Shown here: one piece after another, positions 1-31,000 of the stretch
Numbering within the stretch: position 1 is the first letter of the stretch
How the letters are laid out: each line of letters begins with the position of its first letter
Source: Apostichopus japonicus
Taxonomy: Eukaryota > Echinodermata > Holothuroidea > Aspidochirotida > Stichopodidae
NCBI RefSeq assembly: GCF_037975245.1
Contig: NC_092561.1
Coordinates: 12,521,001-12,585,000 of the forward strand
Reading direction: 5' to 3'
Length of the DNA: 64,000 nt
Position numbers and translations under genes: made by a program
Notes under the pieces: generated by a model
The model's input: only the letters and a program-made list of their open reading frames with translations
What the model was told of the DNA's origin: nothing
Database searches by the model: none

Positions 1-3000
1 CAATTGATCGGTACCGCACATTCGATTGATCGGTACCGAACATTCGATTGATCGATAACGCAGATTCGATCGATCGGTACCTCACATTCGATCGATCACT
101 ACCGCACATTCGATTGATCGGTACCACACATTCGATTGATCGGCACTGCACATTCGATTGATCGACACCGCACATTCGTTCCGTCGGTACCGCACATTCA
201 ATTGATCGGTACCGCACATTCAATTTGTCGGTACCGCATATTCGATTAATCGATACCGCTCATTCGTTCCGTCGGTACCGCACATTCGATTGATCCGTAC
301 CGCACATTCGATTGATTGATACCGCACATTCGATTAATCGATACCGCACATTCGTTCCCTCGGTACCGCACATTCGATTGATCGGTATGGCACATTCGAT
401 TGACCGATAACGCACATTCGATTGATCGGTACCGAACATTCGATCGATCGTTACCGCACATTCGATTGATCGGTACCGCACATTCGATTGATCGGTACGG
501 CACATTCAATTGATCGGTACCGCACATTCTATTGATCGGTACCGCACATTCGATTGATCGGTACCCCACATTCGATTGATCGGTACCGGACATTTCATTG
601 ATCGATACCGCACATTCGATTAATCGGAACCGAACATTCGATATTTCGGTACCGCACAATCGATCGATCAGTACCGCACATTCTATTGATCGGTACCGCA
701 CAATCGATATTTCGGTACCGCACATTCGATCGATCACTACCGCACATTCGATTGATCGGTACTGCACATTCGATTGATCGACACCGCACATTCGTTCCGT
801 CGGTACCGCACATTCGATTCATCGGTACCGCACATTCGATTGATCGGTACCGCACATTCAATTTGTCGGTACCGCACATTCGATTAATCGATACCGCTCA
901 TTCGTTCCGTCGGTACCGCACATTCGATTGATCGGCACCGAACATTCGATTCATCGGTACTGAACATTCGATTGATCGGTACCGCACATTCGATTGATCG
1001 GTACCTCACATTTAATTCATCGGTACCGCACATTCGATTAATCGATACCGCTCATTCGTTCCGTCGGTACCGCACATTCGATTGATCGGTACCGCACATT
1101 CGATTGATTGGTACCGCACATTCGATTAATCGATTCCGCACATTCCTTCCCTCGGTACCGCACATTCGATTGATCGGTATGGCACATTCGATTGATCGTT
1201 ACCGCACATTCGATTGATTGGTACCGCACATTCGATTGATCGTTACCGTAAATTCGATTGATCGGTAACGTACAATCGATTGATCGGTACCGCACATTCG
1301 ATTGATCGGTAACGCACATTCGATTCATCGGTACCGCACAATCGATCGATCGGTACTGCACATTAGATTGATCGGTACCGAATATTCGATTGATCGATAA
1401 CGCAAATTCGATTGATCGGTACCGAACATTCGATCGATCGTTACCGCACATTCGATCGATCGGTACCGCACATTCGATTGATCGGTACGGCACATTCAAT
1501 TGATCGGCACCGCACATTCTATTGATCGGTACCGCACATTCGATTGATCGGTACCGCACATTCGATTGATCGGTACCGGACATTTCATTGATCGATACCG
1601 CATATTCGATTGATCGGTAACGCACATTCGATTGATCGGTACCGCACATTCGATTAATCGATACCGCACATTCGTTTTGTCGGAACCGCACATCCGATTG
1701 ATCGGTAGGGCACATTCGATTGATCGGTACCGTACATTCGATTGATTGGTACCGCACATTCGATTGATCGTTACCGCAAATTCGAATGATCGGTTACGTA
1801 TAATCGATTGATCGGTACCGCACATTCGATTGATCGGTAACGCACATTCAATTGATCGGTACCGAACATTCGATTGATCGGTACCGCACAATCCATCGAT
1901 CGGTACCGCACATTCGATCGATCGGTACCGCACATTCGATCGATTGGTACCGCACATTCGATTGATCGGTACGGCACATTCAATTGATCGGTCCTGCACA
2001 TTCTATTGATCGGTACCGCACATTCGATTGATCGGTACCGCACATTCGATTGATCGGTACCGGACATTTCATTGATCGTTACCGCACATTCGATTGATCG
2101 GTACCGCACATTCGATTGATCGTTATCGCAAATTCGAATTATCGGTAACGTATAATCGATTGATCGGTACCGCACATTCGATTGATCGGTACCGAACATT
2201 CGATATTTCGGTACCGCACAATCGATCGAGCAGTACCGCACATTCCATTGATCGGTACCGCACAATCGATCGATCGGTACCGCACATTCGATCGATCACT
2301 ACCGCACATTCGATTGATCGGTACCACACATTCGATTGATCGGTACTGCACATTCGATTGATCGACACCGCACATTCGTTCCGTCGGTACCGCACATTCG
2401 ATTGATCGGTACCGCACATTCAATTGATCGATACCGCACATTCAATTTGTCGGTACCGGACATTCGATTAATCGATACCGCTCATTCTTGCCGTCGGTAC
2501 CGCACATTCGATTGATCTGTACCGAACATTCGATTGACTGGTACCGCACATTCGATTAATCGATACCGCACATTCCTTTCCTCGGTACCGCACATTCGAT
2601 TGATCGGTATGGCACATTCGATTGATCGATAACGCACATTCGATTGATCGGTACCGCACATTCGCTTAACCATACCGCACATTCGTTTCGTCGGAACCGC
2701 ACATCCGATTGATCGGTACGGCACATTCGATTGATCGGTACCGCACAATCAATTGATCGGTACCGAACATTCGATTGATCGGTTCCGCACATTCGATTAA
2801 TGTGTACCGCACATTCGATTGATCGGTACCGCAAATTCGATTGATCGATACCGCACATTCGTTCCGTCGGTACCGCACATTCGATTGATCGGTACCGCAC
2901 ATTCGACTGATCGGTACCGCAAATTCGATTGATCGGTACCGCACATTCGATTGATCGTTACCGCAAATTCGATTGATCGGTATACCGCACATTCGATTGA

Positions 3001-4599
3001 TCGGTATACCGCACATAAGATTGATCGATACCGCACATTCTATTAAACGATACCGCACATTCGTTCCGTCGGTACCGCACATTCGATTGATTGATACGGC
3101 ACATTCGATTGATCGGTACGGCACATTCGATTGATCGGCACCGAACATTCGATTGATCGGTACTGCACATTCGATTGATCGGTACTGCACATTCAATTGA
3201 TCTGTACTGCACATTTAATCCATCTGTACCGAACATTCGATTGATCGGTTCCGCACATTCGATTAATGGGTACCGCACATTCGATTGATCGGTACCGCAC
3301 ATTCGATTGATCGATACCGCTCATTCGTTCCGTCGGTACCGCACATTCGATTGATCGGTACCGCACATTCGATTAATCGGTACCGCACATTCCATTGATC
3401 GGTACCGCAAATTCGATTGATCGGTACCGAACATTCGATTGATCGATAACGCACATTCGATTGATCGGTACGGAATATTCGATTGATCGATAACGCACAT
3501 TCGATTGATCGGTACGGCACATTCGATTGACCGGTACGGCACATTCGATTGATCGGTACCGCACATTAGATTAATCGGTACCGCATATTCGATTGTTCGG
3601 TTCCGAACATTCGATTGATCGATTACGCACATTCGATTGATCGGTACCGAACATTCGATATTTCGGTACCGCACATTCGATCGATCAGTACCGCACATTC
3701 TATTGATCGGTACCGCACAATCGATCGATCGGTAACGCACATTCGATCGATCACTACCGCACATTCGATTGATCGGTACCACACATTCGATTGATCGGTA
3801 CTGCACATTCGATTAATCGACACCGCACATTCGTTCCGTCGGTACCCCACATTCGATTGATCGGTACCCCACATTCGATCGGTCCCGGACATTCAATTTG
3901 TCGGTACCGCACATTCGATTAATCGATACCGCACATTCGTTCCGTCGGTACCGCACATTCAATTGATCCGCACCGAACATTGGATTGATCGGTACCGCAC
4001 ATTCGATTAATCGATACCGCACATTCGTTCCGTCGGTACCGCACATTCGATTGATCGGTACCGCACATTCGATTGATCGTTACCGCAAATTCGATTGATC
4101 GGTACCGCACATTCGATTGATCGGTATACCGCACATAAGATTGATCGATACCGCACATTCTATTAAACGATACCGCATATTCGTTCCGTCGGTACCGCAC
4201 ATTCGATTGATTGATACGGCACATTCGATTGATCGGTACGGCACATTCGATTGATCGGCACCGAACATTCGATCGATCGGTACGGCACATTCGTTTGATC
4301 GTTACCGCACATTCGATTGATCGGTAACGCACATTCGATTGATCGTTACCGCAAATTCGATTGATCGGTAACGTACAATCGATTGATCGGTACAGCACAT
4401 TCGATTGATCGGTAACGCACATTCGATTGATCGGTACCGCACATTCGATTAATCGATACCGCACATTCGTTCCGTCGGTACCGCACATTCGATTGATCGG
4501 TACCGCACATTCGATTGATCGTTACCGCACATTCGATTGATCGGTATACCGCACAGAAGATTGATCGATACCGCACATTCTATTAAACGATACCGCACA

Positions 4600-7500
4600 A
4601 TCGTTCCGTCGGTACCGCACATTCGATTGATTGGTACGGCACATTCGATTGATCGGTACGGCACATTCGTTTGATCGTTACCGCACATTCGATTGATCGG
4701 TACCGCAAATTCGATTGATCGGTAACGTACAATCGATTGATCGGTACAGCACATTCGATTGATCGGTACCGCACATTCGATTGATCGGTACCGCAAATTC
4801 GACTGATCGGTACCGCACATTCGATTGATTGGTACCGCAAATTCGATTGATCGGTACTGAACATTCGATTGATCGATAACGCACATTCGATTGATCGGTA
4901 CCGAACATTCGATTGATCGGTACCGTACATTCGATTGATCAGTACCGCACATTCGATTGATCGGTACCGAACATTCGATTGATCGATAACGCACATTCGA
5001 ATGATCGGTACCGAACATTCGATTGATCGGTACCGCACAATCGATCGATCGGTACCGCACATTCGATTGATCGGTACCGTACATTCGATTGAAAAGTACC
5101 GCACAATCGATTGATCGGTACCGAACATTCGATTGATCAATCACGCACATTCGATTGATCGGTCGGCTAACATTCGTTTGATCGATAACGCACATTCGAT
5201 TAATCGGTACCGCACATTCGATTGATCGGTACCGCACATTCGATTGATCGGTACCGCACATTCGATTGATCGGTGCCGTACATTCGATTGATCAGTACCG
5301 CACAATCGATTGATCGGTACCGCACATTCGATTGATCAATCACGCACATTCGATTGATCGGTCGGCTAACATTCGTTTGATCGATAACGCACATTCGATT
5401 AATCGGTACCGAACATTCGATAGATCCGTACCGCACATTCGATTGATCGGTACCGCACATTCGATTGATCGGTACCGCACATTCGATTGATCGATACCGC
5501 ACATTCGTTCCGTCGGTAACACACATTCGATTGATCGGTACCGCATATTCGATTGATCGGTACCGAACATTCGATTGATTGGCAGCGCAAATTCGATTGA
5601 TCGGTACCGAACATTCGTTTGATCGGTACCGCACATGCGATTGATCTGTACCGCACATGCGATTGATTGGTACCGCACATGCGATTAACCATACCGCACA
5701 TTCGTTTCGTCGGAACCGCACATCCGATTGATCGGTACGGCACATTCGATTGATCGGTACCGCACAATCAATTGATCGGTACCGCACATGCGATTGATCG
5801 GTACCGCACATGCGATTGATCGGTACCGCACATTCGATTGATTGGTACGGCACATTCGATTGATCGGCACCGAACATTCGATCGATCGGTACGGCACATT
5901 CGTTTGATCGTTACCGCACAATCGATTGATCGGTACTGCACATTCGATTGATCGTTACCACAAATTCGATTGATCGGTAACGTACAATCGATTGATCGGT
6001 ACAGCACATTCGATTGATCGGTAACGCACATTCGATTGATCGGTAACGCACATTCGATTAATCGATACCGCACATTCGTTCCGTCGGTACCGCACATTCG
6101 ATTGATCGGTACCGCACATTCGATTGATCGTTACCGCAAATTCGATTGATCGGTACCGCACATTCGATTGATCGGTATACCGCACATAAGATTGATCGAT
6201 ACCGCACATTCTATTAAACGATACCGCACAATCGTTCCGTCGGTACCGCACATTCGATTGATTGGTACGGCACATTCGATTGATCGGTACGGCACATTCG
6301 ATTGATCGGCACCGAACATTCGATTGATCGGTACGGCACATTCGTTTGATCGTTACCGCACATTCGATTGATCGGTACCGCAAATTCGATTGATCGGTAA
6401 CGTACAATCGATTGATCGGTACAGCACATTCGATTGATCGGTACCGCACATTCGATTGATCGGTACCGCAAATTCGACTGATCGGTACCGCACATTCGAT
6501 TGATTGGTACCGCAAATTCGATTGATCGGTACTGAACATTCGATTGATCGATAACGCACATTCGATTGATCGGTACCGAACATTCGATTGATCGGTACCG
6601 TACATTCGATTGATCAGTACCGCACATTCGATTGATCGGTACCGAACATTCGATTGATCGAAAACGCACATTCGAATGATCGGTACCGAACATTCGATTG
6701 ATCGGTACCGCACAATCGATCGATCGGTACCGCACATTCGATTGATCGGTACCGTACATTCGATTGATCAGTACCGCACAATCGATTGATCGGTACCGAA
6801 CATTCGATTGATCAATCACGCACATTCGATTGATCGGTCGGCTAACATTCGTTTGATCGATAACGCACATTCGATTAATCGGTACCGAACATTCGATTGA
6901 TCAATCACGCACATTCGATTGATCGGTCGGCTAACATTCGTTTGATCGATAACGCACATTCGATTAATCGGTACCGAACATTCGATAGATCCGTACCGCA
7001 CATTCGATTGATCGGTACCGCACATTCGATTGATCGGTACCGCACATTCGATTGATCGATACCGCACATTCGTTCCGTCGGTAACACACATTCGATTGAT
7101 CGGTACCGCATATTCGATTGATCGGTACCGAACATTCGATTGATTGGCAGCGCAAATTCGATTGATCGGTACCGAACATTCGTTTGATCGGTACCGCACA
7201 TGCGATTGATCTGTACCGCACATGCGATTGATTGGTACCGCACATGCGATTAACCATACCGCACATTCGTTTCGTCGGAACCGCACATCCGATTGATCGG
7301 TACGGCACATTCGATTGATCGGTACCGCACAATCAATTGATCGGTACCGCACATGCGATTGATCGGTACCGCACATGCGATTGATCGGTACCGCACATTC
7401 GATTGATTGGTACGGCACATTCGATTGATCGGCACCGAACATTCGATCGATCGGTACGGCACATTCGTTTGATCGTTACCGCACATTCGATTGATCGGTA

Positions 7501-9730
7501 CTGCACATTCGATTGATCGTTACCGCAAATTCGATTGATCGGTAACGTACAATCGATTGATCGGTAACGCACATTCGATTAATCGATACCGCACATTCGT
7601 TCCGTCGGTACCGCACATTCGATTGATCGGTACCGCACATTCGATTGATCGTTACCGCAAATTCGATTGATCGGTACCGCACATTCGATTGATCGGTATA
7701 CCGCACATAAGATTGATCGATACCGCACATTCTATTAAACGATACCGCACAATCGTTCCGTCGGTACCGCACATTCGATTGATTGGTACGGCACATTCGA
7801 TTGATCGGTACGGCACATTCGATTGATCGGCACCGAACATTCGATTGATCGGTACGGCACATTCGTTTGATCGTTACCGCACATTCGATTGATCGGTACC
7901 GCAAATTCGATTGATCGGTAACGTACAATCGATTGATCGGTACAGCACATTCGATTGATCGGTACCGCACATTCGATTGATCGGTACCGCAAATTCGACT
8001 GATCGGTACCGCACATTCGATTGATTGGTACCGCAAATTCGATTGATCGGTACTGAACATTCGATTGATCGATAACGCACATTCGATTGATCGGTACCGA
8101 ACATTCGATTGATCGGTACCGTACATTCGATTGATCAGTACCGCACATTCGATTGATCGGTACCGAACATTCGATTGATCGAAAACGCACATTCGAATGA
8201 TCGGTACCGAACATTCGATTGATCGGTACCGCACAATCAATTGATCTGTACCGCACATGCGATTAATTGGTACCGCACATGCGATTAACCATACCGCACA
8301 TTCGTTTCGTCGGAACCGCACATCCGATTGATCGGTACGGCACATTCGATTGATCGGTACCGCACAATCAATTGATCGGTACCGCACATGCGATTGATCG
8401 GTACCGCACATGCGATTGATCGGTACCGCACATTCGATTGATTGGTACGGCACATTCGATTGATCGGCACCGAACATTCGATCGATCGGTACGGCACATT
8501 CGTTTGATCGTTACCGCACATTCGATTGATCGGTACTGCACATTCGATTGATCGTTACCGCAAATTCGATTGATCGGTAACGTACAATCGATTGATCGGT
8601 AACGCACATTCGATTAATCGATACCGCACATTCGTTCCGTCGGTACCGCACATTCGATTGATCGGTACCGCACATTCGATTGATCGTTACCGCAAATTCG
8701 ATTGATCGGTACCGCACATTCGATTGATCGGTATACCGCACATAAGATTGATCGATACCGCACATTCTATTAAACGATACCGCACAATCGTTCCGTCGGT
8801 ACCGCACATTCGATTGATTGGTACGGCACATTCGATTGATCGGTACGGCACATTCGATTGATCGGCACCGAACATTCGATTGATCGGTACGGCACATTCG
8901 TTTGATCGTTACCGCACATTCGATTGATCGGTACCGCAAATTCGATTGATCGGTAACGTACAATCGATTGATCGGTACAGCACATTCGATTGATCGGTAC
9001 CGCACATTCGATTGATCGGTACCGCAAATTCGACTGATCGGTACCGCACATTCGATTGATTGGTACCGCAAATTCGATTGATCGGTACTGAACATTCGAT
9101 TGATCGATAACGCACATTCGATTGATCGGTACCGCACATTCGATTGATCGGTACCGCACATTCGATTGATCGGTGCCGTACATTCGATTGATCAGTACCG
9201 CACAATCGATTGATCGGTGCCGAACATTCGATTGATCAATCACGCACATTCGATTGATCGGTCGGCTAACATTCGTTTGATCGATAACGCACATTCGATT
9301 AATCGGTACCGAACATTCGATTGATCGGTACCGCACATTCGATTGATCGGTACCGCACATTCGATTGATCGGTACCGCACATTCGATTGATCGATACCGC
9401 ACATTCGTTCCGTCGGTAACACACATTCGATTGATCGGTACCGCATATTCGATTGATCGGTACCGAACATTCGATTGATTGGCAGCGCAAATTCGATTGA
9501 TCGGTACCACACAATCGATTGATCGGTACCGCACATTCGACTGATCGGTACCGCACATTCCATTGATTGGTACCGAAAATTCGATTGATCGGTACCGAAC
9601 ATTCGATTGATCGATAACGCACATTCGATTGATCGGTACGGAATATTCGATTGATCGATAACGCACATTCGATTGATCGGTACGGCACATTCGATTGACC
9701 GGTACAGCACATTCGATTGATCGGTATCGC
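4600..9730. repeat. Recently amplified higher-order blocks inside the satellite
   Basis: Within the array, long blocks repeat with near-perfect identity. 5340-5921 recurs at 6905-7486 (shift 1565), and 7250-7486 recurs at 8285-8521 (shift 1035). 6131-6319 recurs at 7652-7840 (shift 1521) and 8687-8875 (shift 1035). 4678-4908 recurs at 6353-6583 and 7874-8104. The shifts are 22n plus 1 or 3, because blocks include off-length monomers such as the one reading CGGTATACCG. Diagnostic variants, for example the rare GTCGGCTAAC unit, travel with the blocks. This points to recent unequal exchange or replication-based amplification of 1.0-1.6-kb multimers. Confidence 0.85.
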
Positions 9731-12138
9731 ACATTAGATTAATCGGTACCGCCTATTCGATTGATCGGTTCCGAACATTCGATTGATCGATAACGCACAT
9801 TCGATTGATCGGTACCGAACATTCGATATTTCGGTACCGCACAATCGATCGATCAGTACCGCACATTCTATTGATCGGTACCGCACAATCGATCGATCGG
9901 TACGCACATTCGATCGATCACTACCGCACATTCGATTGATCGGTACGACACATTCGATTGATCGGCACCGAACATTCGATTGATCGGTACTGCACATTCG
10001 ATTGATCGGTACTGCACATTCAATTGATCTGTACTGCACATTTAATCCATCTGTACCGAACATTCGATTGATCGGTTCCGCACATTCGATTAATGGGTAC
10101 CGCACATTCGATTGATCGGTACCGGACATTTCATTGATCGATACCACACATTCGACTGATCGGTACCGCACATTCCATTGATTGGTACCGCAAATTCGAT
10201 TGATCGGTACCGAACATTCGATTGATCGATAACGCACATTCGATTGATCGGTACGGAATATTCGATTGATCGATAACGCACATTCGATTGATCGGTACGG
10301 CACATTCGATTGACCGGTACGGCACATTCGATTGATCGGTACCGCACATTAGACTAATCGGTACCGCCTATTCGATTGATCGGTTCCGAACATTCGATTG
10401 ATCGATAACGCACATTCGATTGATCGGTACCGAACATTCGATATTTCGGTACCGCACAATCGATCGATCAGTACCGCACATTCTATTGATCGGTACCGCA
10501 CAATCGATCGATCGGTACCGCACATTCGATCGATCACTACCGCACATTCGATTGATCGGTACGACACATTCGATTGATCGGTACTGCACATTCGATTGAT
10601 CGACACCGCACATTCGTTCCGTCGGTACCGCACATTCGATTGATCGGTACCGCACATTCGATCGGTACCGCACATTCAATTTTTCGGTACCGCACATTCG
10701 ATTAATCGATACCGCTCATTCGTTCCGTCGGTACCGCACATTCGATTGATCCGTACCGCACATTCGATTGATCGGTACCGCACATTCGATTGATCGATAC
10801 CGCACATTCGTTCCGTCGGTACCGCACATTCGATTGATCGGTACCGCACATTCGATTGATCGTTACCGCAAATTCGATTGATCGGTAACGTACAATCGAT
10901 TGATCGGTACCGCACATTCGATTGATCGGTAACGCACATCCGATTGATCGGTACCGCACAATCGATCGATCGGTACTGCACATTGGATTCATCGGTACCG
11001 CACATTCGATTGATCGGTACGACACATTCGATTGATCGGTACTGCACATTCGATCGATCGACACCGCACATTCGTTCCGTCGGTACCGCACATTCGTTTG
11101 ATCGGTACCGCACATTCAATTGATCGGTACGGCACATTCAATTTGTCGGTACCGCATATTCGATTAATCGATACCGCTCATTCGTTCCGTCGGTACCGCA
11201 CATTCGATTGATCCGTACCGCACATTCGATTGATTGGTACCGCATATTCGATTAATCGATACCGCTCATTCGTTCCGTCGGTACCGCACATTCGATTGAT
11301 CCGTACCGCACATTCGATTGATTGGTACCGCATATTCGATTAATCGATTCCGCACATTCCTTCCCTCGGTACCGCACATTCGATTGATCGGTATGGCACA
11401 TTCGATTGATCGTTACCGCACATTCGATTGATTGGTACCGCACATTCGATTGATCGTTACCGCAAATTCGATTGATCGGTAACGTACAATCGATTGATCG
11501 GTACCGCACATTCGATTGATCGGTAACGCACATTCGATTCATCGGTACCGCACAATCGATCGATCGGTACTGCACATTAGATTGATCGGTACCGAATATT
11601 CGATTGATCGATAACGCACATTCGATTGATCGGTACCGAACATTCGATCGATCGTTACCGCACATTCGATCGATCGGTACCGCACATTCGATTGATCGGT
11701 ACGGCACATTCAATTGATCGGTATCGCACATTCTATTGATCGGTACCGCACATTCGATTGATCGGTACCGCACATTCGATTGATCGGTACCGGACATTTC
11801 ATTGATCGATACCGCATATTCGATTGATCGGTACCGCACATTCGATTGATCGGTACGGCACATTCGATTAATCGATACCGCACTTTCGTTTTGTCGGAAC
11901 CGCACATCCCATTGATCGGTAGGGCACATTCGATTGATCGTTACCGTACATTCGATTGATTGGTACCGCACATTCGATTGATCGTTACCGCAAATTCGAA
12001 TGATCGGTAACGTGTAATCGATTGATCGGTACCGCACATTCGATTGATCGGTAACGCACATTCAATTGATCGTTACCGCACAATCGATCGATCGGTACTG
12101 CACATTCGATTGATCGGTACCGCACATTCGATTGATCG

Positions 12139-15100
12139 TTATCGCAAATTCGAATTATCGGTAACGTATAATCGATTGATCGGTACCGCACATTCTATTG
12201 ATCGGTACCGAACATTCGATATTTCGGTACCGCACAATCGATCGATCAGTACCGCACATTCCATTGATCGGTACCGCACAATCGATCGATCACTACCGCA
12301 CATTCGATTGATCGGTACCACACATTCGATTGATCGGTACTGCACATTCGATTGATCGACACCGCACATTCGTTCCGTCGGTACCGCAAATTCGATTGAT
12401 CGGTACCGCACATTCAATTGATCGGTACCGCACATTCAATTTGTCGGTACCGCACATTCGATTAATCGATACCGCTCATTCGTTCCGTCGGTACCGCACA
12501 TTCGATTGATCCGTACCGCACATTCGATTGATTGGTACCGCACATTCGATTGATCGGTACCGAACATTCGATCGATTGTAACCGCACATTCGATCGATCG
12601 GTACCGCACATTCGATTGATCGGTACGGCACATTCAATTGATCGGTCCTGCACATTCTATTGATCGGTACCGCACATTCGATTGATCGGTACCGCACATT
12701 CGATTGATCGGTACCGGACATTTCATTGATCGGTACCGCACATTCTATTGATCGGTACCGCACATTCGATTGATCGGTACCGCACATTCGATTGATCGGA
12801 ACGGAACATTCGATATTTCGGTACCGCACAATCGATCGATCAGTACCGCACATTCTATTGATCGGTACCGCACAATCGATCGATCGGTACCGCACATTCG
12901 ATCGATCACTACCGCACATTCGATTGATCGGTACTGCACATTCGATTGATCGACACCGCACATTCGTTCCGTCGGTACCGCACATTCGATTCATCGGTAC
13001 CGCACATTCGATTCATCGATACCGCACATTGAATTTGTCGGTACCACACATTCGATTAATCGATACCGCTCATTCGTTCCGTCGGTACTGCACATTCGAT
13101 TGATCGACACCGCACATTCGTTCCGTCGGTACCGCACATTCGATTGATCGGTACCGCACATTCAATTGATCGGTACCGCACATTCAATTTGTCGGTACCG
13201 CACATTCGATTCATCGATACCGCTCATTCGTTCCGTCGGTACCGCACATTCGATTGATCCGTACCGCACATTCGATTGATTGGTACCGCACATTCGATTA
13301 ATCGATACCGCACATTCCTTCCCTCGGTACCGCACATTCGATTGATCGGTATGGCACATTCGATTGATCGATAACGCACATTCGATTGATCGGTACCGAA
13401 CATTCGATCGATCGTTACCGCACATTCGATTGATCGGTACCGCACATTCTATTGATCGGTACCGCACATTCGATTGATCGGTACCGCACATTCGATTGAT
13501 CGGAACCGAACATTCGATATTTCGGTACCGCACAATCGATCGATCAGTACCGCACATTCGATTGATCGGTACCGCACATTCGATTGATTGGTACCGCACA
13601 TTCGATTAATCGATTCCGCACATTCCTTCCCTCGGTACCCCACATTCGATTGATCGGTATTGCACATTCGATTGATTGGTACCGCACAATCGATCGATCG
13701 GTACTGCACATTAGATTGATCGGTACCGAATATTCGATTGATCGATAACGCACATTCGATCGATCGGTACCGAACATTCGATCGATCGTTACCGCACATT
13801 CGATCGATCGGTACCGCACATTCGATTGATCGGTACGGCACATTCAATTGATCGGTATCGCACATTCTATTGATCGGTACCGCACATTCGATTGATCGGT
13901 ACCGCACATTCGATTGATCGGTACCGGACATTTCATTGATCGATACCGCATATTCGATTGATCGGTACCGCACATTCGATTGATCGGTACGGCACATTCG
14001 ATTAATCGATACCGCACATTCGTTTTGTCGGAACAGCACATCCGATTGATCGGTAGGGCACATTCGATTGATCGTTACCGTACATTCGATTGATTGGTAC
14101 CGCACATTCGATTGATCGTTACCGCAAATTCGAATGATCGGTAACGTGTAATCGATTGATCGGTTCCGCACATTCGATTGATCGGTAACGCACATTCAAT
14201 TGATCGTTACCGCACAATCGATCGATCGGTACTGCACATTCGATTGATCGGTACCGAACATTCGATTGATCGGTACCGCACAATCCATCGATCGGTACCG
14301 CACATCGGATCGATCGGTACCGCACATTCGATTGATCGTTATCGCAAATTCGAATTATCGGTAACGTATAATCGATTGATCGGTACCGCACATTCGATTG
14401 ATCGGTACCGAACATTCGATATTTCGGTACCGCACAATCGATCGATCAGTACCGCACATTCCATTGATCGGTACCGCACAATCGATCGATCGGTACCGCA
14501 CATTCGATCGATCACTACAGCACATTCGATTGATCGGTACCACACATTCGATTGATCGGTACTGCACATTCGATTGATCGACACCGCACATTCGTTCCGT
14601 CGGTACCGCACATTCGATTGATCGGTACCGCACATTCAATTGATCGGTACCGCACATTCAATTTGTCGGTACCGCACATTCGATTAATCGATACCGCTCA
14701 TTCGTTCCGTCGGTACCGCACATTCGATTGATCCGTACCGCACATTCGATTGATTGGTACCGCACATTCGATTAATCGATACCGCACATACCTTCCCTCG
14801 GTACCGCACATTCGATTGATCGGTATGGCACATTCGATTGATCGATAACGCACATTCGATTGATCGGTACCGAACATTCGATCGATCGTTACCGCACATT
14901 CGATTGATCGGTACCGCACATTCGATTGATCGGTACGGCACATTCAATTGATCGGTACCGCACATTCTATTGATCGGTACCGCACATTCGATTGATCGGT
15001 ACCGCACATTCGATTGATCGGAACCGAACATTCGATATTTCGGTATCGCACAATCGATCGATCAGTACCGCACATTCTATTGATCGGTACCGCACAATCG

Positions 15101-15325
15101 ATCGATCGGTACCGCACATTCGATCGATCACTACCGCACATTCGATTGATCGGTACTGCACATTCGATTGATCGACACCGCACATTCGTTCCGTCGGTAC
15201 CGAACATTCGATTCATCGGTACCGCACATTCGATTCATCGATACCGCACATTGAATTTGTCGGTACCACACATTCGATTAATCGATACCGCTCATTCGTT
15301 CCGTCGGTACCGCACATTCGATTGA
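12139..15325. repeat. 2.2-kb higher-order duplication in the satellite's right half
   Basis: 12139-12435 matches 14339-14635 (shift 2200, exactly 100 monomers) and 12792-13103 matches 15014-15325 (shift 2222, exactly 101 monomers). 11710-11907 matches 13844-14041 (shift 2134, 97 monomers). These copies are more diverged than the blocks at 4.6-9.7 kb. A further pair, 15703-15975 and 16585-16857, has shift 882. Units resembling 12.1-13.1 kb also occur at 0.25-1.0 and 2.1-2.4 kb, so the outer parts of the array share an older higher-order structure that the middle lacks. Confidence 0.75.
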
Positions 15326-17117
15326 TCGGCACCGAATATTCGATTCATCGGTACTGAACATTCGATTGATCGGTACCGCACATTCGATTGATCGGTACCG
15401 CACATTTAATTCATCGGTACCGCACATTCGATTAATCGATACCGCACATTCGTTCCGTCGGTACCGCACATTCGATTGATCGGTACCGCACATTCGATTG
15501 ATCGGTACCGGACATTTCATTGATCGATACCGCACATTCGATTGATCGGTACCGCACATTCGATTGATCGGTACCGCACATTCGATTAATCGATACCGCA
15601 CATTCGTTTTGTCGGAACCGCACATCCGGTTGATCGATAGGGCACATTCGATTGATCGTTACCGCACATTCGATTGATTGGTACCGCACATTCGATTGAT
15701 CGTTACCGCAAATTCGAATGATCGGTAACGTATAATCGATTGATCAGTACCGCACATTCGATTGATCGGTAACGCACATTCAATTGATCGTTACCGCACA
15801 ATCGATCGATCGGTACTGCACATTCGATTGATCGGTACCGAACATTCAATTGATCGGTACCGCACAATCCATCGATCGGTACCGCACATTCGATCGATCG
15901 GTACCGCACATTCGATCGATCGGTACCGCACATTCGATTGATCGGTACGGCACATTCAATTGATCGGTCCTGCACATTCTATTGATCGGTACAGCACATT
16001 CGATTGATCGGTACCGCACATTCGATTGATCGGTACCGGACATTTCATTGATCGTTACCGCCTATTCGATTGATCGGTACCGCACATTCGATTGATCGTT
16101 ATCGCAAATTCGAATGATCGGTAACGTATAATCGATTGATCGGTATACCGCACATTCGATTGATCGGTACCGGACATTTCATTGATCGATACCGCACATT
16201 CTATTGATCGGTACCGCACATTCGATTGATCGGTACCGCACATTCGATTGATCGGTACCGGACATTTCATTGATCGATACCGCACAATCGATTGATCGGT
16301 ACCGCACATTCGATTGATTGGTACGGCACATTCGATTGATCGGTCCCGGACATTCGATTGATCGGTACCGCACATTCGATTGATCGGTACCGGACATTTC
16401 ATTGATCGATACCGCACATTCGATTGATCGGTACCGCACATTCGATTGATCGGTACCGCACATTCGATTAATCGATACCGCACATTCGTTTTGTCGGAAC
16501 CGCACATCCGATTGATCGATAGGGCACATTCGATTGATCGTTACCGCACATTCGATTGATTGGTACCGCACATTCGATTGATCGTTACCGCAAATTCGAA
16601 TGATCGGTAACGTATAATCGATTGATCAGTACCGCACATTCGATTGATCGGTAACGCACATTCAATTGATCGTTACCGCACAATCGATCGATCGGTACTG
16701 CACATTCGATTGATCGGTACCGAACATTCGATTGATCGGTACCGCACAATCCATCGATCGGTACCGCACATTCGATCGATCGGTACCGCACATTCGATCG
16801 ATCGGTACCGCACATTCGATTGATCGGTACGGCACATTCAATTGATCGGTCCTGCACATTCTATTGATCGGTACCGCACATTCGATTGATCGGTACCGCA
16901 CATTCGATTGATCGGTACCGGACATTTCATTGATCGTTACCGCACATTCGATTGATCGGTACCGCACATTCGATTGATCGTTATCGCAAATTCGAATGAT
17001 CGGTAACGTATAATCGATTGATCGGTATACCGCACATTCGATTGATCGGTACCGGACATTTCATTGATCGATACCGCACATTCTATTGATCGGTACCACA
17101 CACTCGATTGATCGGTA

Positions 17118-24336: not shown

Positions 24337-25013
24337 TCAAACTTGAGTTGCGCTATTTGTTTGCTCATTGTAAGAACCCTTTTGCTTACCGTTCGATAGA
24401 GAGGAGGCATAAACACTACTTGGTCTGTATACGTCAGTTCTGTCCTTATCTTCACCTTTGACATACACAAGGTAAATCCTCCAAAGAGTGGTTGCAAAGA
24501 GAAGTAGCAACACTGTAACAGTGGTTGATGTTATCATGAAGTATACGACTGTGATCGAGCGGTCGGATGGTAACGGAGATTCCATCGGCTGACGGATGTC
24601 TGCTTCGTTGGCTGTATTATATCTAACTAATGAAGGTGAATGTGTCGTCATCAGTGATTTCGTCTGTGCTGTAGTCGGATCTGTCGATGGTGCTGTCGTC
24701 GGTTCTCTCGACGGTGATGTGGTCAGTGATGTAATATATGAAGTAGGTGATGTTGGTTGTGGGGGCGCTCTTTCATCTATTGATGTAAGTTCCGTCGTAA
24801 ACAAACTTGTGACTTCAAGAACTGACCATGTCTGCAATGTTGTTGACAGCTCAGAAGTTGGCAACGGTAATGTCGACAGCCTTGGTGAGTTTGACAGCCA
24901 CGGTGTAACTTTGAAGATGACTTGAACGCTGCAAATATGTTTGGTATCTCTCATATATAGAGCGCACGTGACATTACACCAGTTCAGCATCATTGAAACG
25001 GACGCCTTGGGTT
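24337..25013 (-). CDS. Last exon: stalk, membrane helix, cytoplasmic tail
   Basis: Acceptor TTTCTCCACAG precedes AACCCAAGG (phase 1). The exon encodes the end of an Ig-like fold (NWCNVTC, KHICSVQVIF), about 110 residues rich in Thr, Ser and Pro (mucin-like), the helix VYFMITSTTVTVLLLLFATT, the basic stop-transfer residues after it, and a tail with two VY motifs. It ends SATQV and TGA (24337-24339). The 225-codon open frame with this ordered composition is strong evidence of real coding. Confidence 0.75.
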
Positions 25014-28000
25014 CTGTGGAGAAATAAAGAACCACACAAACGTCAATTGACTTTGTCCTATTCTAGTAGCATGAAAGAACTATGAATGCGGTCCAGACTT
25101 GTAAAACTCGAGTCCGTGCTATATGTTAATGCAATCAGGACATTGTACTTGTTGATAGTTTATAGTACGAACACAAGCAAAGTTATCATTGCTTTTTAAC
25201 CATACATCTGTGCGTTTACCGTAATGATAAAGCAGCAGATGTCTTATGTATGTAGTTGTTTTATGTTAAAGACAATATCAATTAGTTTAATGATTGCAAT
25301 GCTCCTTCAATACAGTTATTCTATTGCGATTGTCACAAGTAATACATATTTTTTGTTTTGCTTTATTCTTCACTCTGTAACTGAAAAACATGATAACACA
25401 ATCAATGTGTCTTCGGCATATATATTTCAGACTTCCTGGTTGATTGAGCTCAAGATCAGGCCCATTTAAGGTCACGATCGAGCTCAATCAAGACCGTTGC
25501 CATGGCAACACAAGGCTGACTGAATCTGAGTTTGAAATGGACTTTGACAACAAAATGTCATATTTATGTAACCATGGAGCTATAAACAGAGCTCCATGAT
25601 GTAACTAAAGAACATAGAAACATTAGTAATTTTACATTTTGTTTATAATTTGAATTTATCCTCATGTTGTTACCATGGCAACAGCCCTATTAAGACATGA
25701 AAATGACCTTAAATGATCCAGTTCTTGATTGTAATCAACCGGGCAGAGCCAAATCAATATTTTTTGGGAATATGTATATTATATGATATTTTTCTCAAAG
25801 TCCAAATTTCATCATGGCACTTTTTGTTATATGTATATTATATGATATTTTTCTCAAAGTCTAAATTTCATCATGGCTATTGCCATGGTAACAGCCCTAA
25901 TTAGGGATGACTTTGACTTCCCTGATTGTGATTGGCTTCACCAGGGCAGCTACAAATATATATATATATACTGAGACACTAACGTTGTGCTTTTAGGTTA
26001 TTTAATTACAAAGATATGACAAATTCTCAAATTCCAAGTTGTAATGAATACGTTGCCGTGGCAACATCGCTGTTGGCCACACCAACCATTAGTTTAATGG
26101 CAAACAAGCAGATTGTGATAGCTGAGGGTCCTAGCTAACCGAAAAACATGATGGGGGTGAAAATTCCTAAGAAAAACATGGTGGGGGTGAAAATCCCTAA
26201 GGGATTCGTTTTTTTTTGGGGGGGGGGGGGCTTTCGCTGCGATTCTTGATGACAAGATATATTTGCGCCAATCTGTATGAAGTGAGCTTGACACATTTGC
26301 GGTACTAATACCAGTTACTTATACAGGACAATACCATGGTTACATACGGTTACCCAATTTACCTAGCTACGTTTATACCTTTCATGCTTAAACCTGAACC
26401 AATGCTTTATTGAGATATTTAGCTGCTGAAAGAGTCGACCATGTCGGAGTGTTGACTTGTATTACACATATAAAAGCTATAAAAACATCCAAACCCCGTC
26501 CTCGTCACCGTCCCTTCCTCATTACCATTCAGTCTTTCAAAATGCAACAATTGTAAACAACGTTGGTTGATAATAGATCAAAATTTGATATTTATAAAGA
26601 TGAATTTAATATTTTGTATTAAACTAAATACACCGTATGTATGTGGAACACAGTCATGGTGGGGGGGGGGGGACCTATACACGCAAATACGGCAGGTCAG
26701 AGGATCAATAAACACATCAAGTCACTGCGGACTAAACAAAGTCTTGTAGTTGACGAATTCCAGATCCCCGTGTTTCCCCAAATTACTTGCGTAAACTCAA
26801 AATCCTATGAATTCTGTTTCGGGTTTCGAATTACTGTGCTATTTCCAGCCATTCAGATCCCTAAATAAGATTAGTCACATGTAGTTAACGTGTTTGACTT
26901 AATAAGTATTGTTCCTTCCTCATTCAAAAAGGTCTTGAATTGTGAATAGGTATTGTTTGTTGAAATTTCAGGCTTAATCCCAGTTCAAGATCGTCTGCAT
27001 AGAATATAGTTGTAAAGGGAGACAACTAACAGCAAGAACTCTCTTGCGAGCATAATCTTAAGCAACCTCAGTTTGTGAATAAGAAGATTTCACGGAATCC
27101 GTTACTTCTTGCTTCGCAGTCATCGATAGTATCGGGGCATAAGCCTATTGCACATTTCCGACTCTTGAAAGGAAGTGAAATTCTTGCTGCTTGATGCAAT
27201 GTAAACAAAGACATTGAAGCGTGAGCTTCTTGTTAATAAAGATCCGTTTGTTCTAATGAGAGTAAATCAGGATGAATAGAGATTTCGTTGAAGGCAGTGT
27301 CATTCACTGTTACCAATAGATTGTATCCAACCATGGAGCTATAAACAGAGCTCCATGATCCAACCAACAACACCAATTTAAGTTCGTAGAAAGTTAACTC
27401 GTCAAATTGCTCAGATGGTAGAGCAGTGGACTGGTAACCTGATGAACTGAGTTCGACTCCATTCTATGGTTGGTTATATACACGTTAAAAATTTCTTTTT
27501 CTCTTTCAGTAGTCGCCGCTGAAGTCTTGATATATTAATTCAACCATATAATGTACTAGCTGATGTGGTGGCCGATGCTATAGAGGGTGACGAAAGACTC
27601 ATTCCTTGTCGGTCGTGGCTAGGGTTCAAGACAGGCCTCTGGCGATAATACCTCAGGTTGTGGCATGGTGCTTTTTTTGTGGTCTAGGATCCCGTACCAT
27701 GTCTCCCTTGTTGTCGCAAAAGAACCCGGGAGGATGCGCAGAGGGTCGGTCAATCGACCAGAAGCGTTCTAGGTGGCGTGCGTGAATCCTTGCCTTTGGC
27801 CAGAGGTGGAGACACTCTCTGCGACCGGCATGCTTGCAACCACCGTCCACTGAATACATGGCCTGATGAGGCGCTATTCTCCTAAAAAAGAATCTACGGA
27901 TGCCTTTAAGAGCCATTATTTTATATATTAAAAAAAACACCCTGTTTCAAACTAGCGCCATCGAATTCCGTAAAGCCGGATTTTTTTCCTTATCACTCTG

Positions 28001-31000
28001 AAGGTGGAATGAAGTTTATTGTAATGAGTTATTTGTGGTAAGCCAATCAAAACATTCAAACAGTCAAGCGGTTCACAAGAGTTTACAGGAACTTAATTAA
28101 ACTCATTGTTTGACATAAATGTGTTGGCAAAGATTTACACAACCTACACCAAACCAAGCGTTATCGTTATTATATTCGTTGCAGTGCCAGAGACATACAA
28201 TCCAGCAAGACCATGAGATAACATTTTAATATACATAGAATTCAATCTATATCACTTTTGTGGGAACAACCAAAGTATACCAGTGTCAATACGGTCCCAT
28301 TATAAGCAACAGTGTTGTAGCAAATTCTCATACCGAATAGTAGGTAGTTTCAGAAACTGAGTGATTCTTAAGAACTTTGTTTAAGATTCAAAAAAAATAT
28401 ACCCCGTATTCTGTTTGATAACTTCAGGAACAAAATTAACTTTGATATGCCGTGGACCGTTAAAAACCACTGCTCTCGGTCTAGCTAGGGTTGTATTCCT
28501 ATAGCACATTTACTTATTTTCTTGTTTTGGAATGACCCTTTAAACAGTTGAGGACCTTTTAGTTTAGTACACAGCTCATCAGACTATAGTTCCTTGGTTG
28601 CACTACAAAACTCAATGGATGAAATTAAGATTATATGGTCTCAAATGACATGTTTATAATTTATTACAAATTTGATAAGGACAAATGATGTTTAATGCCA
28701 TCCAAGGGTGCTCTGTTGCTTATATGAAGATTAACAAACATATTCTGGTTGACCTCAAAAACAATGGATTAACATTAAAGAGCCGACGTCACCATCAAGT
28801 TAGCCCAAACGAATATTCCAGAAATTAAGTATATTTAACGATACATATCTTGAAAAATACTGAAATAGCTACAGAACATTATTGGACTCAAAGTTGTATG
28901 TTTTCTTTGTATTATAACATTATCAAGACTAAAATTCTGCCTTATTTATTATTTAATTATTTAAGTGAGTTATCAAGTTACAATATATCTGTCGATAATT
29001 CTCCCATGATTGAATACCGGGGATACTTTTAAGTGTTACGTTTGTTTGGTAAAGTAACACAAACCCGGTCACGATGTGGTTCCAACCGGTACCATTATCT
29101 TCTTGAAGAGTCTTAGTTAAGGTAGCAGAAGCACACCCAACCATTAACAGGTGTCTATGTGATAGAGATGAACGACATACCTCCAAAAGTTAAGAACATG
29201 TTTATTCCACCCTGCAGGGAAATAGCAACTTAAAAGTTCTTTGACAGACAAAGGTGATGGCTTGAACAAATCAAAATATTACAGACCGATTCCCATTTGC
29301 ATTGATTTTAATAGAGATCTTATTTATTGCAGTACCTACTTCCCGTTATAAAGTTGGGCTTCCCAAAATAATGGTTGATCGAACATGTTGAATTTTGGTG
29401 CATGTACCTAATAAGTTATGCTTTCAATGCTTTCAGTGTCAAGTGTGTAAATTCAGCTTGAAAATGAAAAAAAAAAATGAAAAGAAAAAAAAAGAAGAAG
29501 AATAGCTAAAGGAATAGCCATGTGTGCACCTCCTGGCAACACTTTGTCATCATGACCTGACAAAATGACACACTCATGACACAAATTTCAATCCTGATCT
29601 CTCCCAAATATTTCGATTTATTCCTTGAAATTGTAAATGATTTCGGTGTTTTCCTCAAATTTTCGACCTTTTATAGAAAGTTTTAAGGAAAATGCCAAAA
29701 TTTCCAATGACTTTGGTAGGCCTATGACAAAGCACAAAATGATAATTTGACGGCTAGCTAGCTGACAATTTCCTCGTAGAAATGAAACCGGGCTTTGCTT
29801 TTATGTCGCTATGCATGTTACTATGCAGTCATACTTGACTCGAATTTTCAATGATTACAGCAGCCTGGGTTAATATTACACATGTTTAGATATGGCAAAA
29901 CATAAAAGTGACGGATACATCCACACCTCAGCTTCCCCTCCTCCGTCGGTCCTGTAGAAGATGAATAACCGGCCCAGCAGTTATAGTAGGCTATATATAG
30001 AATTCTTCAAACGGGTGCAAAAAAAATTGTGATGCAAAGTCATTCCTATTAAACGGAAATGCTTCGAACGCTTGAGCTTTTGTGATGACTGTTATGTTTT
30101 CATGTAACTTTGAACCTTCGTGGTTCACGATCCACACGCTTATGTTGTCTGAATAATTCTTGCGTCACATCTTGGTTCATTCTCCTCCTTTAGTTTCAAC
30201 CTCCAACGACTGTTTTTTAGTACATTGGCTCTATACAAATCGCCAATACACACGCTTTGTCTTTATCATTGATTACTTGCAGTAAGTTTTATATACCTTA
30301 CACCAGGGTTGTCCAACCTTTTGATGAGGAGGGCCACCTCGAATGATTATGATAAAGGAGGGGCCGCATGAGCCTACAAGCTCCTGTGGCATATCCAGGG
30401 TTTCGTGCCAGAGCGGCAAATTCAGTGGCCCCGCTAGGGGTCTGTTAGGGGGTATGGGAAATGAAGTTACTATACAAGCGGAGCGCCACTGTAGCTTGGC
30501 GCGTGGCGTGCAAGAAAAAAAAATCGCCCAAAAGATCCCCAGATTGCAGGAAATGACACTTCACAAGCCTTCTGATCTGTATCAAAACAATCTTCATATT
30601 GAGATATAATGATCTCTCAAATTTATCAAGAAAGAATTCCTGGGTAAAAGTACATTTGTAAATTAATGAGGTTGGCGGGCCGGACGGGACCTTGCGGCGG
30701 GCCGCACTGTGGCCCGCGGGCCGTAGGTTGGACAACCCTGCTTTACACACACATGCCTCATCGATGAAAGATGCATTCATTTTATCCCCGACGATTTGAG
30801 CAAACAACACGTAGTCAGTGTCTGTCTGTAACGTTACCCCCCACCTCATGTTTATAAACTTAACCCCTCCCCCCCCAAAAAAAAAAACCCGCCGAGCTAT
30901 TAGTCGATCTAATTTCCATTGTATCTGTAAGACAGACTTCTAGCTGAAGTTAAAGATTGAAGATCAACCGCGTTTGCCTAAACAAAATCCCAAAAAGTAT

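What the first reader, a model, noticed from the sequence alone, without database searches (positions are those of the whole stretch)
25566..27364. A 26-bp perfect hairpin inserted twice, each copy with its own exact 7-bp direct repeat
CATGGAGCT-ATAAACAG-AGCTCCATG occurs identically at 25573-25598 and 27332-27357. The first is bracketed by ATGTAAC on both sides, the second by ATCCAAC on both sides. Two independent exact 7-bp flanking repeats are very unlikely by chance and look like target-site duplications, with a shared target pattern AT-N-N-AAC. An insertion this short, with a conserved loop and no other sequence, fits no transposon family I know. It could be a minimal mobile hairpin, a stereotyped excision scar, or an end-to-end product of a larger element.
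Basis: partly seen in the sequence, partly recalled or inferred. Interest (0 to 1): 0.8.

Follow-up and report, generated by a model that had tools for sequence, protein, structure and literature searches.

The report
Excision scars of a jumping gene
The two tiny hairpins are most likely scars left where a cut-and-paste transposon jumped out of the chromosome, and this genome keeps hundreds of such scars, far more than it keeps intact copies of the transposon.

Summary
In detail: identical 26-bp palindromes at 25573-25598 and 27332-27357, each between exact 7-bp direct repeats. Genome-wide the repeats are real target-site duplications: 35 of 42 examined copies exact (shuffled pairing mean 1.1), and in one repeat family the same site occurs empty (3 of 15 copies fetched, one 7-mer each) or filled by different hairpins. 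The 26-bp unit is not a fixed element. It is one product in a spectrum of 15-48 bp inserts built from an 18-nt tip (CATGGAGCTATAAACAGA or CATGGAGGTAAAAACAGA) joined to 0-18 nt of a second, inverted tip; only 1 of 101 listed inserts runs on past nucleotide 18 along the parent sequence. That is the signature of end joining after excision with an 18-nt stagger. Ten intact candidates (4.45-16 kb) with inverted tips extended by AGGAGA exist, against 517 of 565 tips without that exact extension. The 7-bp duplication, palindromic target TTnGTTnAACnAA, CA tips and long stagger resemble P-superfamily elements (Drosophila P cuts 17 nt inside; Galileo has 7-bp GTANTAC duplications). P-type transposase domains lie inward of four of 51 tips (random placement mean 0.04), but inside none of the ten pairs. 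So: excision scars, probably of a P-like transposon.

The parts
25566..25572 (+). left target-site duplication ATGTAAC of scar 1
   Evidence: genome-wide test
25573..25590 (+). scar 1: complete 18-nt transposon tip CATGGAGCTATAAACAGA
25591..25598 (+). scar 1: outer 8-9 nt of the second, inverted tip (GCTCCATG; the A at 25590 can belong to either tip)
   Evidence: L 18, R 9, overlap 1
25599..25605 (+). right target-site duplication ATGTAAC of scar 1
27325..27331 (+). left target-site duplication ATCCAAC of scar 2
27332..27349 (+). scar 2: complete 18-nt transposon tip CATGGAGCTATAAACAGA
27350..27357 (+). scar 2: outer 8-9 nt of the second, inverted tip
27358..27364 (+). right target-site duplication ATCCAAC of scar 2

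Best explanation
Both hairpins are excision footprints of a cut-and-paste DNA transposon. SHOWN: inserts of this family stand between duplicated 7-mers of a palindromic target (TTnGTTnAACnAA); they are made of an 18-nt tip, CATGGAGCTATAAACAGA or CATGGAGGTAAAAACAGA, joined to 0-18 nt of a second, inverted tip; ten tip-bounded intact candidates, whose tips run on into AGGAGA, remain. INFERRED: transposase cuts one strand at the transposon/flank border and the other 18 nt inside, leaving 18-nt 3' tails on the donor ends; end joining keeps one tail whole and copies it onto, or ligates it to, a trimmed second tail. The 26-bp product is the join in which the last A of the 18-nt tail pairs with the T at position 9 of the other tip; the tips being inverted copies, the join is a palindrome. 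INFERRED, less sure: the transposase is of the P superfamily.
For: Duplication: 35 of 42 exact; in the GGT sister family 12 of 12 fetched copies have it, 9 exact and 3 with one mismatch. Empty sites: in the L095 repeat family, of 15 copies fetched, 3 (L144-L146) have one GTACAAC and no insert, 11 carry inserts of both tip types, mostly different from one another, and 1 (L148) is rearranged without such an insert. 18-nt boundary: 101 inserts between exact 7-mers at 95 loci, 15-48 bp long; 56 reach exactly 18 nt of tip, 1 (L117) goes on along the parent sequence, 44 have less or a variant tip; of the 57, 47 have a gap of 0 or an overlap of 1 to the second tip. Examples: T18+TSD (L126), T18+G+TSD (L098, L113, L167), T18+TCCATG (L155, L165, L170), T18+10 nt (L160, L112), T18+13 nt (L191), T18+17 nt (L159, one mismatch in the TSD), T18+12 nt+T18 (L117). 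Parents: tip+AGGAGA gives 51 sites, control 0, and ten inverted pairs 4,450-16,084 bp long. P-like: 17-nt stagger described as distinguishing P (PMC7776569, passages); Galileo of the P superfamily has 7-bp TSDs, GTANTAC, in a palindromic target (PMC4168063, abstract and passages); zebrafish Pdre2 tips begin CAT (PMC10983969, passages); PF21787 hits inward of 4 of 51 tips within 15 kb versus a mean of 0.04 under random placement, 0 of 2000 runs reaching 4 (the 15-kb limit was chosen after seeing the places).
Against: Of 26 exact 18-nt tips sampled from the list, 11 have no 7-bp repeat (up to one mismatch) within 45 bp; 3 of these are copies of one repeat and 1 is a parent end; flanking deletion is assumed for the rest. 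The P-type family whose ends I could see has other tips (CACTGATC, apparent 8-bp duplication). The stagger read here is 18, not 17. Many of the 101 inserts were found through searches for the 26-mer or the 18-nt tip, so their frequencies are biased. The 26-bp class is very uniform for the GGT tip (at least 100 exact copies, against 191 tips followed otherwise), more than I would expect of end joining.
Confidence: 0.87

Rival explanations
1. Minimal mobile hairpin: the 26-bp palindrome itself is the unit that moves, using a transposase in trans.
For: Identical 26-bp units at many sites with 7-bp duplications; the GGT 26-mer has at least 100 exact copies.
Against: Inserts of many other lengths share only the tip; some are one tip plus the duplication and no hairpin (L097, L098, L113, L118, L126, L154, L167); tip-bounded kilobase elements exist.
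Confidence: 0.05
2. Same excision scars, but made by a transposase outside the P superfamily that also cuts about 18 nt inside its ends.
For: No PF21787 hit inside any of the ten tip-bounded pairs; no such tips in the 8.5-9.5 kb read around five other groups of P-type genes.
Against: Long stagger, 7-bp palindromic GTNNNAC target and CA tips are described for P-superfamily elements; 4 of 51 tips have a P-type RNase H hit inward within 15 kb.
Confidence: 0.2
3. Aborted gap repair or internal deletion: the tips remain because copying of the element from the sister chromatid stopped early.
For: L117 keeps both 18-nt tips plus 12 nt beginning AGGAGA, like the parent.
Against: It is 1 of 101; aborted copying should leave variable longer ends.
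Confidence: 0.07
4. Chance palindromes, or a longer repeat that carries the hairpin.
For: Some copies do lie in repeats or duplications (L054 family, L004/L005, L031/L032, L074-L076, L079/L080, L124/L125).
Against: Reversed-pattern controls are 0; most of the 118 flanks compared share nothing over 60 bp.
Confidence: 0.01

Closest known systems
Drosophila P element
   Same: Cut-and-paste; the two strands are cut 17 nt apart, so donor ends keep tip sequence; tips beginning CATG (recalled, from no call)
   Different: 8-bp rather than 7-bp duplication; stagger read here is 18; transposase not tied to the intact copies here
Galileo (P superfamily)
   Same: 7-bp duplications, palindromic target, consensus GTANTAC against GTTnAAC here
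   Different: Galileo has long internally repetitive inverted repeats; here the shared inverted tip is at least 24 bp and the two subterminal ends seem to differ
Zebrafish Pdre2 / THAP9
   Same: tips begin CAT; excision assays show joined donor ends with flanking deletions
   Different: 13-bp inverted repeats, 8-bp duplications
MITEs
   Same: small, non-coding, inverted ends, duplications, many copies
   Different: MITEs share an interior and a size (recalled); these share only an 18-nt tip and vary from 15 to 48 bp

Membership tests
P superfamily | 7- or 8-bp target-site duplication | tested here: met
   7 bp: 35 of 42 exact; empty site in 3 of 15 repeat copies. Read on scars, not on intact copies
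P superfamily | palindromic target motif extending beyond the duplication | tested here: met
   TTnGTTnAACnAA in 57 GCT and 24 GGT scars; 3.40 of 8 complementary pairs against 2.10 for random background; column shuffles give 3.35, so the palindrome is in the motif, not in pairing within each site
P superfamily | terminal inverted repeats beginning CA | tested here: met
   ten inverted pairs of CATGGAG[C/G]TA[T/A]AAACAGAAGGAGA, by pattern only
P superfamily | 17-nt staggered cut inside the tip, leaving tip sequence at the donor | tested here: inconclusive
   scars stop at 18 nt of tip in all but 1 of 101; which strand is cut cannot be seen
P superfamily | element encodes a P-type (RNase H with GTP-binding insertion) transposase | tested here: inconclusive
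   PF21787 hit inward of 4 of 51 tips within 15 kb, but in 0 of 10 intact pairs
MITE | copies share an interior and a length | tested here: not met
   lengths 15-48 bp around an 18-nt tip
hAT superfamily | 8-bp target-site duplication (recalled) | tested here: not met
   7 bp in 35 of 42; the one longer match (9 bp, L021) is in a CT repeat

The most novel reading that the evidence does not exclude
The transposon is removed almost every time it inserts: hundreds of scars against about ten intact copies would mean that its donor breaks are closed by end joining rather than refilled from the sister, by a host or element program, so that the genome holds a sequence archive of one break repaired hundreds of times.
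Probability: 0.2. Interest if true: 0.75.

Novelty: new variant of a known kind. Interest (0 to 1): 0.55.

Why it matters
Excision footprints are usually studied in reporter assays. Here one genome carries hundreds of natural ones from alike breaks, so the stagger of the cut (18 nt) and the rules of end joining in that germ line could be read directly from sequence. They also suggest that a transposon's past activity can be far larger than its surviving copies show, and that repeat annotation, which looks for shared interiors, would tend to miss it.

Tried and rejected
Embedded in a longer repeat: rejected for most copies. P-type genes as direct parents: the stretches read around C13/C17 (L109, L150), C22 (L151), C17 (L108), C19/C21 (L132-L134) and C3/C17 (L130, L131) do not carry the tips; several of those elements may run beyond the 8.5-9.5 kb read. 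L107/L079/L080 looked like a parent (tip followed by a shared interior) but is a separate 2.1-kb element (ends TACGGAGAGCC, 416-bp inverted repeats, 6-bp duplications in 7 of 7 readable loci) that carries one parent end. The nearest inverted pair of bare tips in the 100 places printed, L152, is two scars with an apparent inversion between them; another pair 20.8 kb apart is two unrelated sites (L172, L173). A tRNA next to scar 2 was suspected by eye; ARAGORN finds none in 25000-28500. A de novo scan of 310 kb of held (partly overlapping) sequence for 7-bp repeats around palindromes gave 95 hits (75 CATGGA, 12 CAGGGA, 5 CAGAAA, 3 others); its mirror control gave 25, which I did not inspect, so I lean only on the first two classes. 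Paper searches for natural scars of this kind were seen as listings; in them I saw no report of a genome-wide scar archive like this. Three papers were read as passages (PMC7776569, PMC4168063, PMC10983969).

Full report
What is there. That genome has 56 copies of CATGGAGCT-N8-AGCTCCATG, reversed control 0, and with up to three mismatches 110 + 97 matches to the window's version, including a sister form with a paired change in the stem, CATGGAGGTAAAAACAGACCTCCATG. The sister form alone gives 93 + 82 matches at up to one mismatch; all 100 places printed are exact.

The 7-bp repeats are target-site duplications. Of 42 copies with flanks (the two here and 40 of the other 54), 35 have an exact 7-bp repeat, 5 differ by one base, 1 by two and 1 by four. 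Re-pairing flanks between copies gives a mean of 1.1 matches, maximum 5. In the sister family 12 of 12 fetched copies have the repeat, 9 exactly and 3 with one mismatch. One repeat family (40 scored of 1450 candidates) gives the direct test. Of 15 copies fetched, chosen partly for their different lengths, L144, L145 and L146 have the plain site with one GTACAAC; 11 carry inserts, such as CATGGAGCTATAGCTCCATG (L142), CATGGAGCTATAAACAGATAGCTCCATG (L139), CATGGAGGTTTTTACCTCCATG (L141) and CATGGAGGTAAAACCTCCATG (L149), with the 7-mer on both sides, in some with base changes; L148 has no such insert and is rearranged. L095, L135, L136 and L137 share a changed left copy (GTATAAC), yet L137 carries a different insert from the other three; one insertion with two outcomes is the simplest reading, but a recurrent base change is not excluded.

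The insert is a scar, not a unit. A one-sided search for target plus the first 8 nt of the tip gave 97 + 117 hits, control 1 + 1. I read 17 two-sided and 20 one-sided cases from that list, 24 loci from the 191 sister tips not followed by C and 26 of 565 exact 18-nt tips. One search lists 101 inserts between exact 7-mers at 95 loci (some are copies of one repeat, and many were found by searching for the 26-mer or the tip, so frequencies are biased). By the recount, 56 of 101 hold exactly 18 nt of tip, CATGGAGCTATAAACAGA or CATGGAGGTAAAAACAGA; 1 (L117) runs on for the 24 nt of the parent tip; 44 have less, or a variant tip. Of those 57, 34 overlap the inverted second tip by one letter and 13 abut it. 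Shorter products overlap at self-complementary letters (the 20-bp one at TATA). The 26-bp form is T18 plus the outer 8-9 nt of the other tip. It is a small share for this tip (29 exact 26-mers, against 565 tips) and a large one for the sister tip (at least 100, against 191 others). The strand chemistry behind this is inferred: a cut at the border on one strand and 18 nt inside on the other, then end joining of the 3' tails.

Against that: of the 26 sampled tips, 15 have the 7-mer again within 45 bp (10 exact, 5 with one mismatch) and 11 do not (L156, L161, L162, L164, L166, L168, L169, L171, L173, L185, L189). L162, L173 and L189 are copies of one repeat, L185 is a parent end, and the rest share no sequence after the tip as far as read by eye. 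I take them as scars with flanking deletions, which is an assumption. The sample was the 14 C1 sites outside the window, 3 on C2, 2 taken as a possible pair, and 7 more on C2, all from the 100 places that one search printed.

Target. From 81 scars with distinct flanks (57 + 24; duplicates, L071, L153 and rows over 20 bp without a second tip dropped), the site is TTnGTTnAACnAA, a palindrome centred on the duplication.

Parents. Tip plus AGGAGA occurs at 51 sites, control 0; ten inverted pairs bound 4,450 to 16,084 bp, eight of them 4,450-5,099 bp (an eleventh pairing spans two neighbouring elements). In each of the ten, one end is among the matches of the 396-bp end and the other is not, so the shared inverted repeat seems short and the subterminal regions different (one search scored 40 of 125 candidates, so absence there is not firm). 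Of 565 tips of the GCT form, 48 carry the exact AGGAGA extension (51 less 3 of the sister form), many of them in the captured copies described below; 517 do not, against ten intact candidates.

Which transposase. The genome has P-type transposases: PF12017 12 matches, PF21787 45 matches. A PF21787 hit lies inward, within 15 kb, of 4 of 51 tips (C16:29991522, C20:4571149, C17:16770475, C17:17781523); random placement on the same contigs gives a mean of 0.04, and 0 of 2000 runs reached 4; one hit lies outward. The limit was set after the places were seen, and local clustering of these genes is ignored. None lies inside the ten pairs, which are therefore non-autonomous, too diverged, or of another kind. 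Published features agree with the P superfamily: the 17-nt stagger (PMC7776569, passages), 7-bp palindromic GTANTAC targets of Galileo (PMC4168063, abstract and passages), CAT-starting tips in zebrafish (PMC10983969, passages). I therefore say it works like a P-superfamily element, with membership likely but not shown.

A captured end. The tip followed by parent sequence in L107, L079 and L080 sits in a separate 2.1-kb element with 416-bp inverted repeats, 96-99% alike at the nine loci fetched. L185 has the same tip and interior with another left flank, switching exactly at the tip, which is what first showed that the tip is a real element end.

A second tip. CAGGGAGCTGTTAC gives 81 + 76 matches, control 1. 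Of ten loci read, six are copies of one 35-bp scar inside a repeat with CTATAAC on both sides (once with one change), one (L178) has GTTGTAC on both sides, one (L183) is a tandem array, and two (L174, L182) show no repeat. The L095 family carries a 25-bp CAGGGAGTT form between GTACAAC copies, beside the CATGGAG inserts. So more than one transposon family has probably left such scars here.

Verdict. A true and correctly described feature, explained as excision scars of a cut-and-paste transposon with an 18-nt stagger, probably P-like. The kind is known; the size of the natural archive and the imbalance of scars over intact copies are what is unusual.

Noticed in passing
window 3-17117: A 22-bp minisatellite (ATTGATCGGTACCGCACATTCG) of about 777 copies fills the first 17 kb; the long minus-strand open frames there are probably a by-product.
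   Followed up: partly
L153 (C2:31519150-31519850): A tandem array with a 35-bp period whose unit is one duplication (GTAATAC) plus one 28-bp hairpin, in both orientations.
   Followed up: no
L152 (C2:23816900-23818600): Two hairpins 1 kb apart whose flanks CTGTAAC and GTTACAG are reverse complements, as if the stretch between had been inverted through the scars.
   Followed up: partly
L107, L192-L200: A young 2.1-kb element (96-99% alike at nine loci) with 416-bp inverted repeats, tips TACGGAGAGCC and 6-bp duplications (7 of 7 readable loci), carrying a captured end of the scar-making transposon.
   Followed up: partly
L109 (C13:12994000-13003500) and L150 (C17:16760000-16769000): An 8.2-kb P-type element, about 97% alike at the two loci, with roughly 118-bp inverted repeats, CACTGATC tips and an apparent 8-bp duplication at L109 (7 letters visible on the right, where the fetched stretch ends).
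   Followed up: partly
L130:3185-5062: A P-type transposase frame (625 aa) whose residues 35-105 weakly resemble the RAG1 importin-binding family, below the curated cut-off (18.4 against 23.3 bits).
   Followed up: no
L183 (C7:1633500-1634000): CAGGGAGCTGTTAC repeated about every 146 bp in a tandem array.
   Followed up: no
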